Notes under the pieces: generated by a model
Seen by the model: the letters and a program-made list of their open reading frames with translations, nothing else
What the model was told of the DNA's origin: nothing
Database searches by the model: none
Translations under genes and position numbers: made by a program
Shown here: positions 36,018-42,895 of the stretch, one piece after another
Position numbering within the stretch: the stretch's first letter is position 1
How the letters are laid out: each line of letters starts with the position of its first letter
NCBI GenBank assembly: GCA_029972225.1
Contig: CP124756.1
Span: 1,098,001-1,162,000 of the forward strand
Length of the DNA stretch: 64,000 bases
From: Candidatus Thiothrix putei
Lineage (GTDB): Bacteria; Pseudomonadota; Gammaproteobacteria; Thiotrichales; Thiotrichaceae
Direction of reading: 5' to 3'

Positions 36018-37121
36018 GTATCATAAGTGCATAGCCCGTTAATCGAGGCGGGATGCGATTTTCCTCATCAGGTCAGCGGCAAGATGTGGTAAAAAGCATC
36101 CCGAAAAACCACTGACAGGAGAGCTTCATGGCTTACACACACCTTACCTCTGAGGAGAGGCATTATATCGAAACCCGGCACAAGATGAAGGAATCGACGG
36201 CAACAATCGCGTTAACCTTGGGGCGCAGTCAATCGACGATCAGTCGTGAACTGACCCGCAACCGAGGGCAACGCGGCTATCGGCACAAGCAAGCGCACGC
36301 CAAAGCGCAACAACGCCATGCGGACAAGCCCAAAGCGGTCAAGTTGACCCCGGAACTGGCGGTCAGCATTGATACGCTGCTGGAACAGCAATGGAGTCCT
36401 GAGCAGATCAGCGGTCGACTGAAAGCGGAAGGCAAAACGACTATTTGCCATGAAGCCATCTACCAGCATGTACTCAGGGACAAGCGTGCGGGCGGCAAGC
36501 TGTACCTGAACCTGCGCCGCCATACGAAGAAATACCGCCAGCGTTACGGCAGTAAAACGGGCAGCGTCAAAGGCATCCCCAACCGAGTGGACATTGACGA
36601 ACGCCCAGCGGTAGCCAACCAGCGTGAACGGCTCGGTGACTGGGAAGCCGACACCATGATCGGCAAGGGACACCAAGGCGCACTGGTGACACTGGATGAA
36701 CGCAAATCCAAGCTACGCCTAGCTTTTCCAGTGGCAAACAAGACCGCAGAAGCCGTAACCAGCAGCATTATCACCTTGCTGGACAGCTTCAAGGATTGGG
36801 TGCACACGCTCACCTTCGACAACGGCAAAGAGTTTGCCAAACATGAGCAAGTTGCCCAAGCCCTTGGGTGCGAAACGTATTTCGCCAAGCCCTACCATTC
36901 GTGGGAGCGTGGGCAAAATGAGAACGCCAATGGGCTGTTACGCCAATACTTCCCCAAGGCAATGGGGCTATTGGACGTGACCACCCGACAGGTACTGGAG
37001 GCTGTACATAAACTCAACAACAGACCAAGGAAGTGTCTGGGATTCAAGACACCTTACGAGGTGTTCCGAGAACTATCCGGCATAGAGGCCGAAAAGTTGG
37101 TGGGTTATGCACTTATTACTT
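36018..37121 (+). mobile_element. IS30-family insertion sequence
   Basis: The element is about 1104 bp, with matching inverted ends sharing ATAAGTGCATA (36022-36032; complement at 37107-37117) plus CCC further in. It is flanked by the direct repeat GAATTC (36012-36017 and 37122-37127). Because GAATTC is a palindrome it could also be read as part of the ends, but one copy restores an open frame in the host gene. Confidence 0.8.
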
Positions 37122-37123
37122 GA
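36128..37123 (+). CDS. IS30 family transposase
   Basis: The 331-residue transposase has an N-terminal helix-turn-helix (YTHLTSEERHYIETRHKM, then LGRSQSTISRELTRN) and a DDE core: Asp in RLGDWEADTMIGKG, Asp in LTFDNGKEF, Glu in ERGQNENANGLLRQYFPK. It is complete. The stop reaches into the right end of the element. Confidence 0.95.
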   Translation: MAYTHLTSEERHYIETRHKMKESTATIALTLGRSQSTISRELTRNRGQRGYRHKQAHAKAQQRHADKPKAVKLTPELAVSIDTLLEQQWSPEQISGRLKAEGKTTICHEAIYQHVLRDKRAGGKLYLNLRRHTKKYRQRYGSKTGSVKGIPNRVDIDERPAVANQRERLGDWEADTMIGKGHQGALVTLDERKSKLRLAFPVANKTAEAVTSSIITLLDSFKDWVHTLTFDNGKEFAKHEQVAQALGCETYFAKPYHSWERGQNENANGLLRQYFPKAMGLLDVTTRQVLEAVHKLNNRPRKCLGFKTPYEVFRELSGIEAEKLVGYALIT

Positions 37124-39810: not shown

Positions 39811-40647
39811 TTAGCCAAACAAGTGTCTGGTTTCCTCGCAAGACTTGGCGGAAAGTGCCTGAAGTTGTTTCAAGCCTTCAGCCGTCCCTTCCAGCAGGTG
39901 TTTTTCCAAGCGCTCTGGCTTCATTTCCAGCATGAGTTTTAGCCCAGCTTCTAAGCCACCGCCATTGGCGAACAGGGCGGCTGACGTCGCCCGGATAGCA
40001 CCGCCCAATATTACAGCTTCGAACAGTTCCGGTGGCGGGCAACTCAGGCAAGGGTCAGGGCGGGGCGGAATCGGGCGGTTAGGCATGGGCAGCAACAGGT
40101 AGCGCTCAATCAAGCGTTCCCGCAACTTCAGGTCTAACAGACCCAGCCAGTCGAACACGAATTGTGTGACCCAGCACGGGCCATACAATCCGATTAAGCG
40201 TTTGCGGAATACCAGCCCGGCATCCAACAGATTGACTTTGGGGTGGAATTCTTCAATGCCGGGGTAAGAATACAGGCTTTCCAGCGTATGGAAGAAGAAG
40301 CAATGGCGCGGAATTTCCGGTGGGGCTAACCAGACCGCCAGATTCAGGTAATAGCGTTTGATCTTTTCCCAGTTAGCGCCGCCAGCCGCTTCGATTTGGG
40401 TGATATTGATATTCATCCAGTGATGCCAGGTGGAATCGGTCGCTACCCGCCCGACATTGGCACGATGACCGTCATACACATTGATCATGGCAAACCGCTT
40501 GGCAGGTGAATCCCCTTTTTCATGCTGCAAGGGTGGGTCAGCTAAGGTTGTCCCGTGCGCAATGACCATCGGCAGGGGTTGTACCCCGCCTGCTGTGGGG
40601 TATTCTGCTCCCGTAACCCCCGCCCCGAAATTGTAGTTATTGCCCAA
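39811..40647 (-). CDS. hypothetical protein of unknown family
   Basis: The 278-residue protein starts with TTG (LGNNYNFGAGVTGAEYPTAG). I do not recognise a domain. It has aromatic-rich segments (HCFFFHTLESLYSYPGIEEF), Pro-rich stretch LPMPNRPIPPRPDP and a helical end. The reconstructed upstream gene would have ended in TAA overlapping this TTG, so the two were an overlapping gene pair before the TnpB element inserted between them. Confidence 0.65.
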   Translation of the reverse strand: MGNNYNFGAGVTGAEYPTAGGVQPLPMVIAHGTTLADPPLQHEKGDSPAKRFAMINVYDGHRANVGRVATDSTWHHWMNINITQIEAAGGANWEKIKRYYLNLAVWLAPPEIPRHCFFFHTLESLYSYPGIEEFHPKVNLLDAGLVFRKRLIGLYGPCWVTQFVFDWLGLLDLKLRERLIERYLLLPMPNRPIPPRPDPCLSCPPPELFEAVILGGAIRATSAALFANGGGLEAGLKLMLEMKPERLEKHLLEGTAEGLKQLQALSAKSCEETRHLFG

Positions 40648-40669
40648 GGTGATAGCCGCTAACCGTTAT

Positions 40670-42052
40670 TTCAAACCTACCCAAATCTACCTATAGCTAA
40701 CTAAAAGTAGTCATGGTGTTGAATTCCTGCTTCACGGGGGCTGGTTTCGTCTTCGGCTTGCGCCCAAGACCAGAGCCTTCCCCTCCACAGGCAGACACCG
40801 TGTAACTCACGGCGTATTCTTCTAAATTCTTGGCGGCATTTACGTCACGGTCATGGACTGCACCGCAAACGGGGCAAGTCCATTCACGTACCGACAGTGG
40901 CAGCTTCTCCACTTTATGCCCACAGCCAGAAGCAGAACAGGTTTTGCTGGAGGCAAAAAACCGATCAGCCACCACGACCACCGCACCGCGCATTCCCGCC
41001 TTGTATTCCAGTTGCCGCCGGAACTCGAAAAACCCCATATCACTGATGGCACGGGATAAATGACGGTTTTTCACCATGCCCGACACGTTCAAATCTTCAA
41101 TGCCGATGGTGTGAAAACGGCGGGTTAAATCCGTAGTGAGTTGGTGCAAACTGTCTTGGCGAATGTTGGCAATACGTGCGTGAAGTGTTGCCAGTTTTTG
41201 TTTTGCCTTGTGGCGGTTGGCACTGCTTTTGACCTTGCGGGACAGGCTGCGCGAGAGCCGTTTTAGGCGGGAAAGCAAGGCTTTATGCGGCTTCGCCCCA
41301 ACCACTTTTTCCCCCGTTGATAGGGTTGCCAGTGCAGATACGCCCAAATCCACCCCTACCGTGCCTTGGTTTTTGGCAGGCGGGAGGTGGTTTGAGGTGG
41401 TGTCCACGGTGATGCTGGCGAACCACTGATCAGCGGTGCGGGAAATCGTGGCAGAGAGAATTTTACCGGAAAAGCGTAACGTTTCCCGCATCCGTACTAA
41501 CCCAAGGTTGGGAATGCGGATGCGGCAACCGTCAAGGCTGAACTGGTCGTTAGTGAGGGTGAAACTGTCGCGGCTTTTACCTTTCTTTTTGAATTGCGGG
41601 TACTTGGCTCGTCCCGCAAAGAAGTTTTTGAAGGCTACGCCGAGTTGGATAATTGCCATTTGCGGGGCGTTTTTGGTGACTTCCAGCATCCAGGGGAATT
41701 GTTCGCGTTTGATGGCGTTCAATTGGCGGCGCAAGCCCATTTGGTTGGGTTTTGGCTGGGTGTTATCGTCTTTCCATGCGGCGTATTGGGTTTGCCATTC
41801 TGCCAACGCCCAGTTGTAGGCGAACCGTGCTGTGCCTGCGGCTTTCGCCAAGTACGTCGCTTGCTTATGGTTGGGGTCAAGGCGGATTTTGTGGCTGATG
41901 ATCATGGCAAACAGAATGCAGCACGGTGTGATAGTTGTCTAGTCATCCGTGCTTTTGCTGCTATCGTTTACGGATAAACGGCACTACGCTTTTATAAACC
42001 TAACCAAAATGATAAAGTTTGAATAGATTTATATAGATTTTATGGTAACTGT
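40670..42052 (-). mobile_element. stand-alone TnpB element (IS1341/IS605 group)
   Basis: About 1383 bp contain only tnpB. No Y1 tnpA gene is visible. TTTCAAACC occurs at both borders (40669-40677 and 42052-42060). In the tnpB direction the left border is preceded by TTGAA and the right border ends with TTGAA, which fits the paired cleavage sites of IS200/IS605 elements. Exact ends are inferred from reconstruction of the host gene. Confidence 0.7.
40697..41905 (-). CDS. tnpB: RNA-guided nuclease TnpB
   Basis: The 402-residue protein has RuvC residues Asp in GVDLGVSAL, Glu in IGIEDLNVSGM and Asp in HDRDVNAAKN, with a zinc finger CSASGCG...CPVCG. Its N-terminus (HKIRLDPNHKQATYLAKAAG) is standard. 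TnpB is the programmable nuclease ancestor of Cas12 (family knowledge). All catalytic residues are present. The omega RNA would overlap the 3' end of the gene. Confidence 0.95.
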   Translation of the reverse strand: MIISHKIRLDPNHKQATYLAKAAGTARFAYNWALAEWQTQYAAWKDDNTQPKPNQMGLRRQLNAIKREQFPWMLEVTKNAPQMAIIQLGVAFKNFFAGRAKYPQFKKKGKSRDSFTLTNDQFSLDGCRIRIPNLGLVRMRETLRFSGKILSATISRTADQWFASITVDTTSNHLPPAKNQGTVGVDLGVSALATLSTGEKVVGAKPHKALLSRLKRLSRSLSRKVKSSANRHKAKQKLATLHARIANIRQDSLHQLTTDLTRRFHTIGIEDLNVSGMVKNRHLSRAISDMGFFEFRRQLEYKAGMRGAVVVVADRFFASSKTCSASGCGHKVEKLPLSVREWTCPVCGAVHDRDVNAAKNLEEYAVSYTVSACGGEGSGLGRKPKTKPAPVKQEFNTMTTFS

Positions 42053-42895
42053 TTCAAACCCCACATCGGGTTGTGGCACATGATCAAACACCACCCCTTC
42101 ATGAGGATGGTCGGGCATCACATCAATCGGGCCTAAAGTGGGGTGGCACAATACCGGATGCGGGCGTTTGCGGATATGCAAAGGGGAAGAGGAGAAGGAT
42201 AACCACGCCTTCCATTGAATAGGTTGTGGTACTGCATCGCTTTGACGGTCGAATTCAATGGTTTCTGTACCTGCCATTTCTGCGGCATTGGCAGGGCGAT
42301 TGGTATCAATCCGCAACGCTGTACCAATCGGTGGTACGCCCTGCGCATTTGTCCAGGCTCGCATAGTGCCGACACGCGGAATGCGGTGACACATGGAAGC
42401 CCCTAAGTAATCATGGTCGCCAGTGGCAAATACTCCGCCTTTACGGTTATTCATCCAGGTGGTCAGCACGGCTAATTCGGCGTTGCTGGCAGGTAACGCG
42501 CCCGGTGCGGTGATATTTGCATCAGAACCGCCGAAATTGTCCGGTTTGAAGCCAAAGCACCACACCTCATCATACGCATCAATCACCCGCCCACCGGCAG
42601 GCAGCGTGCTGTCAAAGCGAAACCCCAGGTATTTAGCCGCCGTGCCAACGGGACTGGCAACGACGCTAAAGGGTACATTGGAACGTACCCCAACATCGAC
42701 CTGGAAGTGCATACAACCAACGGATGTGTCACGCAGCAAACGGATCACGCGCTCAATCCCGAAGGCATTTGCCCCCGGTGACAGGCTGATTTCGTTATCC
42801 ACAACGATTAAAATATTTACCCGGCTACGCAGGTATTTCAGCAAATAATCAGACAATGCCGGGCGGGCAATGTCTATCACATGATGTAAGTCCAT
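42029..42895 (-). CDS. hypothetical protein, 3' end replaced by TnpB element
   Basis: The 288-residue protein is of a family I cannot name. It shows VNILIVVDNEISLSPGANAF, then DEVWCFGFKPDNFGG and LTTWMNNRKGGVFATGDHDY, a Rossmann-like layout recalling ThuA/amidotransferase-like folds. The last residues (TVTIKSI) are encoded by the element; joining the flanks suggests a native end FEITVSGYHLGQ. It was probably an operon with the gene at 39811. Confidence 0.6.
   Translation of the reverse strand: MDLHHVIDIARPALSDYLLKYLRSRVNILIVVDNEISLSPGANAFGIERVIRLLRDTSVGCMHFQVDVGVRSNVPFSVVASPVGTAAKYLGFRFDSTLPAGGRVIDAYDEVWCFGFKPDNFGGSDANITAPGALPASNAELAVLTTWMNNRKGGVFATGDHDYLGASMCHRIPRVGTMRAWTNAQGVPPIGTALRIDTNRPANAAEMAGTETIEFDRQSDAVPQPIQWKAWLSFSSSPLHIRKRPHPVLCHPTLGPIDVMPDHPHEGVVFDHVPQPDVGFETVTIKSI

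What the first reader, a model, noticed from the sequence alone, without database searches (positions are those of the whole stretch)
40660..42065. Stand-alone TnpB element with readable target motif and guide
In the tnpB direction both borders carry TTGAA, the form of motif used as cleavage site and TAM by IS605-type elements such as ISDra2 (TTGAT). The guide of its omega RNA would then start at base 40669 going left (ATAACGGTTAGCGG...), that is, the restored junction of the two host genes. The nuclease appears active, so it could cut the empty allele.
Basis: partly seen in the sequence, partly recalled or inferred. Interest (0 to 1): 0.6.

Follow-up and report, generated by a model that had tools for sequence, protein, structure and literature searches.

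The report
TnpB-only IS607-type element in Thiothrix

Summary
The element is real: a 1,398-bp unit (40663-42060, minus strand) with an intact 402-aa TnpB, interrupting one host gene. The same genome holds 17 other full-length copies, fragments, and two copies that also carry tnpA. TTGAA lies inside both ends in every own-genome copy, and only 6 of 55 relatives keep it at the right end. The outer border is GG at both ends, in a target reading (A/G)GGG: 18/18 own-genome insertions and 30/30 in relatives. Ungapped empty sites in sister genomes confirm it. The tnpA beside tnpB in two copies is an IS607-family serine recombinase. So this is a tnpA-less IS607 element, presumably moved in trans, not an IS605/ISDra2 type. 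The scaffold covaries strongly (27 of 34 pairs with double changes). All 18 TnpBs keep the catalytic triad, dN/dS about 0.13. Cutting the empty allele is plausible but untested. Known kind; the extras are the excess of tnpA-less copies and three RNA-only miniatures.

The parts
40663..42060 (-). Whole TnpB-only IS607-type element, from left GG to right GG (1,398 bp)
   Evidence: Borders from alignment of 18 same-genome copies with different flanks and from ungapped empty sites in sister genomes
42059..42062 (-). Predicted TAM GGGG (consensus RGGG); 42059-42060 is the GG exchange dinucleotide at the left junction
   Evidence: RGGG in 18/18 own-genome insertions and 30/30 in relatives (chance)
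41906..42060 (-). Left end and leader of the tnpA-less form (GGTTTGAAACAGTTACC...), conserved at 155 nt across Thiothrix
   Evidence: 91-98% identical in several Thiothrix stand-alone copies, more diverged in others
40697..41905 (-). tnpB, 402 aa, RuvC D-E-D triad and zinc-finger cysteines present
   Evidence: PF01385, PF07282, PF12323; NF040570 above cut-off; phmmer to ISDra2 TnpB E 3e-63; triad in 18/18 copies
40663..40799 (-). omega/right-end RNA scaffold, overlapping the 3' end of tnpB and ending ...ATAACGG
   Evidence: 34-pair consensus with 27 doubly changed pairs, covariation score 0.555 against 0.224 in shuffles
40724..40791 (-). Part of the scaffold resembling Rfam RAGATH-18, below the family threshold
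   Evidence: RF03064 22.9 bits, gathering score 44.9, E 0.46
40663..40664 (-). GG exchange dinucleotide at the right junction, last scaffold bases
40643..40662 (-). Predicted 20-nt guide TTAGCGGCTATCACCTTGGG
   Evidence: First variable base after the conserved AACGG in all 28 right ends of this genome; matches the empty allele of G002 20/20 beside AGGG
42061..42895 (-). 5' part of the interrupted host gene (no Pfam family found)
   Evidence: Joined flanks restore a 580-codon frame, intact in three sister genomes
39811..40662 (-). 3' part of the interrupted host gene

Best explanation
The element is a tnpA-less member of the IS607 family. It carries only tnpB and the guide RNA at its right end. 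IS607 serine recombinase encoded by an autonomous copy elsewhere in the genome probably moves it in trans, exchanging strands over a GG dinucleotide within an (A/G)GGG target (inferred). Shown by sequence: the ends, the GG core, the target, the empty allele, the tnpA gene directly upstream of near-identical tnpB in two copies, the intact TnpB and the covarying guide-RNA scaffold. Inferred: TnpB processes the 3' part of its transcript into the guide RNA, which reads the right flank from 40662 onward, and cuts the empty allele next to RGGG. Repair from an occupied copy would then restore or spread the element. The occupied site is spared because its right junction reads AACGG, with C instead of G at position -3.
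For: 18 full-length copies share exactly GG|TTTGAAAC...AAC|GG (one left end with a single base change) with unrelated flanks. G precedes the GG in 18/18 own insertions (P(G before GG)=0.23 in the same flanks). Joined flanks with GGG occur ungapped in sister genomes for this site; of eight other sites tested, four were read base by base at the junction and the others appear as contiguous hits over the joined sequence, one with a 1-nt gap. IS607 TnpA (NF033518, 207.8 bits, cut-off 110; MerR plus resolvase domains) abuts tnpB in two copies, whose left ends also read GGG|TTTGAACAGTT. The Y1_Tnp search found only two proteins; the one examined looks REP-associated. [quoted passage not shown] Scaffold covariation reached in 0/500 shuffles. 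Purifying selection: mean dN 0.016, dS 0.130 among 17 copies. The window's target, tested as an 18-nt GGG-guide pattern, occurs elsewhere only with 2 mismatches; a BLAST of all guides shows no second perfect 20-nt place.
Against: No transposition, small-RNA or cleavage data. RGGG could be purely a preference of TnpA, not a TAM read by TnpB. TnpB protein scores slightly better to the IS200/IS605 TnpB model (337.9) than to the IS607 TnpB model (300.7), reaching neither cut-off. The left end of the two autonomous copies differs from that of the tnpA-less copies beyond roughly the first 16 bases, so cross-mobilisation is plausible but not shown.
Confidence: 0.9

Rival explanations
1. IS605/ISDra2-type stand-alone element: Y1 transposase cleaves at TTGAA, which is also the TAM.
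For: TTGAA occurs near both ends; the closest named TnpB with a solved structure is ISDra2's (E 3e-63).
Against: TTGAA is internal in every own-genome copy; host DNA begins after GG; the empty site has no TTGAA next to the guide; right-end TTGAA kept in 6/55 relatives; no IS200-type Y1 transposase turned up in the genome.
Confidence: 0.02
2. Immobile relic: tnpA-less copies are dead decay products and TnpB is not used.
For: No tnpA in the element; truncated copies and copies interrupted by other DNA exist.
Against: 18 full-length copies with uniform ends, intact frames, intact triad and dN/dS about 0.13; two nearly identical copies at different sites (L035 and L009, 99%).
Confidence: 0.06
3. 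TnpB has been repurposed for another role (RNA-guided regulation or defence) rather than element maintenance.
For: Each copy carries a different guide; truncated copies and miniatures keep complete guide-RNA scaffolds.
Against: Triad intact in all 18 copies; no second perfect guide match in the own genome; guides read the insertion site as in ordinary transposons.
Confidence: 0.05

Closest known systems
IS607 family (IS607, IS1535, ISXfa1)
   Same: GG at both ends and in the target, (G)GG preference, no target duplication, serine recombinase of MerR-resolvase order in the autonomous relatives, guide-RNA scaffold extending to the fixed right-flanking bases
   Different: This copy lacks tnpA; the tnpB protein lies between the IS607 and IS200/IS605 TnpB models
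IS607 TnpB with RAGATH-18 guide RNA (ISFba1; PMC11061315)
   Same: tnpB followed by a structured guide RNA; G-rich TAM (published AGGAG or GAGGG; here predicted RGGG); shared CCTGTGGAG...TGAAGCAGGAA core
   Different: RAGATH-18 match below threshold (22.9 against 44.9 bits); scaffold partly inside tnpB
IS1341 group (TnpB-only elements; PMC9956272)
   Same: Only tnpB between two ends
   Different: IS1341 is defined by organisation with origin unclear; here the ends are IS607-type and tnpA-bearing relatives live in the same genome
ISDra2 TnpB (IS200/IS605)
   Same: Homologous nuclease, E 3e-63, aligned triad
   Different: ISDra2 moves by Y1 TnpA and uses TTGAT (established knowledge); neither applies here

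Membership tests
IS607 family | GG dinucleotide at both element ends and at the target, no target duplication | tested here: met
   18 copies and empty sites in sister genomes
IS607 family | Own serine recombinase TnpA with N-terminal MerR-type domain | tested here: not met
   Absent from this copy; present in two autonomous relatives in the genome. Hence 'tnpA-less IS607 element', not a full IS607
IS607 family | Transposition by TnpA in cis or trans | not testable with these tools
   Needs an experiment
IS200/IS605 (ISDra2 type) | Insertion 3' of a fixed flanking motif such as TTGAT, outside the element | tested here: not met
   Outside motif is RGGG; TTGAA is internal
IS200/IS605 (ISDra2 type) | Y1 HUH TnpA available | tested here: not met
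   Y1_Tnp search finds two proteins; the one scanned scores 72.9 to the REP-associated model (cut-off 80) and 19.5 to IS200 (cut-off 55); the other was not scanned
RNA-guided TnpB nuclease | RuvC D-E-D triad and zinc finger | tested here: met
RNA-guided TnpB nuclease | Structured omega RNA at the right end with guide from the flank | tested here: met
   Covariation over 55 sequences; scaffold end conserved at CGG in 52/55. Expression not tested
RAGATH-18 RNA (RF03064) | Score at or above the gathering threshold | tested here: not met
   22.9 bits against 44.9; none of 20 relatives reaches it
IS1341 group | tnpB as only gene, no tnpA remnant | tested here: inconclusive
   tnpB only; no tnpA match by tblastn in the stand-alone relatives, but the ends are IS607-type, so the group label says little

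The most novel reading that the evidence does not exclude
One genome may hold a three-tier IS607 family sharing GG-type ends and a guide-RNA scaffold: autonomous tnpA+tnpB copies (2), tnpB-only copies (18 full length) and RNA-only miniatures (3). The two lower tiers would be moved by TnpA in trans, and the miniatures would supply guides to TnpB in trans. That tnpB stays under purifying selection in copies lacking tnpA would show that the nuclease itself keeps the element in the population.
Probability: 0.45. Interest if true: 0.55.

Novelty: new member of a known kind. Interest (0 to 1): 0.35.

Why it matters
Whether TnpB-only elements are mobile, independent or decay products has been called unclear (PMC9956272). 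Here 18 full-length copies with mapped IS607 ends, empty alleles in sister species, tnpA in the same genome and a conserved, selected tnpB make that question directly testable in one organism. It also corrects a motif and a guide that would have made any cleavage test fail.

Tried and rejected
TTGAA as border or TAM: rejected by copy alignment and empty sites. Y1 transposase as mobiliser: of the two Y1 proteins found, the one scanned is REP-associated-like. First family scan of tnpA used a wrong frame and failed; repeated. RAGATH-18 membership: below threshold in the window and in 20 relatives. Folding the single scaffold gave only z -1.5; the comparative test was decisive instead. Second target sites of the guides in the own genome: no second perfect match. 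A literature search for 'stand-alone' IS607 TnpB returned nothing; the search for non-autonomous IS607 TnpB gave 4 papers, not all read. No structure prediction was run, since sequence homology already settles the fold.

Full report
What was checked. The finding claims a stand-alone TnpB element at 40660-42065 whose borders carry TTGAA, used as cleavage site and TAM as in ISDra2, with a guide starting at 40669 going left.

The element and its true ends. A search of the window's own genome (4.28 Mb, one contig) with the element returns 34 matches: 18 full-length copies (94-100% identity) and many fragments. With flanks taken for every copy, the 18 full copies share the same ends with unrelated flanks: GG|TTTGAAAC... 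on the left (one copy with a single base change) and ...GGTTTGAAATAAC|GG on the right, 1,399 bp from GGG to CGG (one copy 1,423). In the window this puts the element at 40663-42060 on the minus strand. TTGAA (42057-42053 and 40674-40670) is inside both ends. Across 55 sequences including divergent relatives only 6 keep TTGAA in the last 15 nt of the right end, whereas 52 end in CGG.

The target. The base before the left GG is G in 18/18 own insertions, the base before that A or G in 18/18, and the base after the right GG is T in 16/18. In the same flanks P(G before GG) is 0.23 and P(T after GGG) 0.30. In relatives, counting rows with a readable left end and leaving out two matches that are not ends (L170, L176) and one at a contig edge (L086), all 30 read (A/G)GGG. 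These rows include autonomous and tnpA-less elements and are not all phylogenetically independent.

The empty site. Joining the window flanks as ...GATGTG-GGG-TTAGCGG... restores one open frame of 580 codons, while one or two G's break it. That junction exists ungapped in three sister genomes (G002 96%, G013 95%, G012 93%), each with an uninterrupted 580-codon frame. So the 'two host genes' are one gene, without a Pfam family in either half. Eight further sites were searched together. Four were read base by base at the junction in a close sister genome: L010, L012, L017 and L019; at L014 and L015 the matches that could be read are more diverged. L011 and L016 were not read at the junction and appear only as a contiguous 98% hit and a 98% hit with a one-base gap.

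Mobilisation. Two copies carry an upstream gene of 207-211 aa ending on the tnpB start. Its product is an IS607-family transposase: NF033518 207.8 bits against a cut-off of 110, with MerR and resolvase domains. Their left ends also start GGG|TTTGAACAGTT. One of the two is interrupted in tnpB. A Y1_Tnp search finds only two proteins; the one scanned scores 72.9 bits to the REP-associated model (cut-off 80) and 19.5 to IS200 (cut-off 55). IS607 is known to insert at GG with (G)GG preferred and without duplication (PMC6188088). Trans-mobilisation is therefore likely but inferred.

The guide RNA. The region 40663-40799 (minus) was aligned with 54 relatives. A 34-pair consensus gives 94.8% paired cells, 27 pairs changed on both sides, and a covariation score of 0.555 against 0.224 in shuffles and at most 0.13 in slid controls. 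This rests on an alignment whose consensus also yielded the structure, but the size of the effect is far beyond the slid controls. The scaffold ends at AACGG. PMC10711439 showed for ISXfa1 that the right-flanking nucleotide fixed by IS607 transposition belongs to the scaffold, not the guide. The guide here should start at 40662: TTAGCGGCTATCACCTTGGG. It matches the empty allele of G002 20/20 next to AGGG. Rfam RAGATH-18 matches the same stretch below threshold (22.9 bits, E 0.46) and reaches it in none of 20 relatives, so it is a resemblance, not a membership. Published IS607 TnpB TAMs are AGGAG and GAGGG (PMC11061315), also G-rich.

The protein. TnpB matches PF01385, PF07282 and PF12323 and aligns with ISDra2 TnpB at E 3e-63. 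The NCBIfam scores are 337.9 to IS200_TnpB (cut-off 425) and 300.7 to IS607_TnpB (cut-off 350), so the protein lies between the named models. All 18 copies keep the three catalytic motifs; among 17 of equal length mean dN is 0.016 and mean dS 0.130. Activity itself was not tested.

Self-sparing. In the occupied locus the guide sequence is preceded by AACGG, in the empty allele by RGGG. All 28 right ends in the genome read TAACGG. A TAM that reads position -3 would separate the two; this is inference. The window's target was searched as an 18-nt pattern, GGG plus the first 15 guide bases, with up to 2 mismatches: it gives only the copy itself (1 mismatch, CGG) and one place with 2 mismatches. 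A BLAST of all 28 guides shows each at its own site and no second perfect 20-nt match.

History. The tnpA-less form with a 155-nt left end occurs in several Thiothrix species. In a tnpB tree the labels with and without tnpA need 5 changes, at least 3 forced by well-supported branches, so the forms have interchanged more than once, by tnpA loss or by recombination. Outside the genus tnpA-less relatives have other leader lengths (L093, L099, L137), suggesting separate losses.

RNA-only miniatures. A model of the scaffold finds three extra sites in this genome without tnpB. Two are complete 377-bp units GG|TTAATAACAG...TTCAGAATAAC|GG; joining their flanks with exactly GG restores the longest frames, 487 and 337 codons. 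One target reads TGAGG, with A at -3, so RGGG is not obligatory for insertion of the miniatures. The third has a different left part. Similar-scoring sites occur in G004 and G014. Whether their RNA works with TnpB is untested.

Verdict. The copy-number excess of the tnpA-less form, its selected tnpB and the miniatures make it a useful test system.

Noticed in passing
G000 C1:1012982-1013164 (L238), 2952258-2952440 (L239), 93930-94112 (L240): Three tnpB-less miniature elements about 99% identical over 312-378 bp that carry the guide-RNA scaffold and end in AATAACGG; two complete 377-bp units restore host frames when removed with one GG kept.
   Followed up: partly
G000 C1:70711-70847 (L032), 552457-552593 (L033): Truncated copies that keep a complete right-end scaffold and a private guide but lack most of tnpB; possible trans guides.
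   Followed up: no
L027/L066 (3009128 -) and L030/L067 (601941 +): Two autonomous IS607 copies with tnpA directly upstream of tnpB; the second is interrupted within tnpB by another transposase-like gene.
   Followed up: partly
window 36128-37123 +: IS30-type transposase-like gene (HTH_38 and rve), a second mobile element near the finding.
   Followed up: no
L036 (555196 +), L037 (4028118 +): The two Y1 proteins of the genome; the first resembles REP-associated tyrosine transposases, the second was not scanned.
   Followed up: partly
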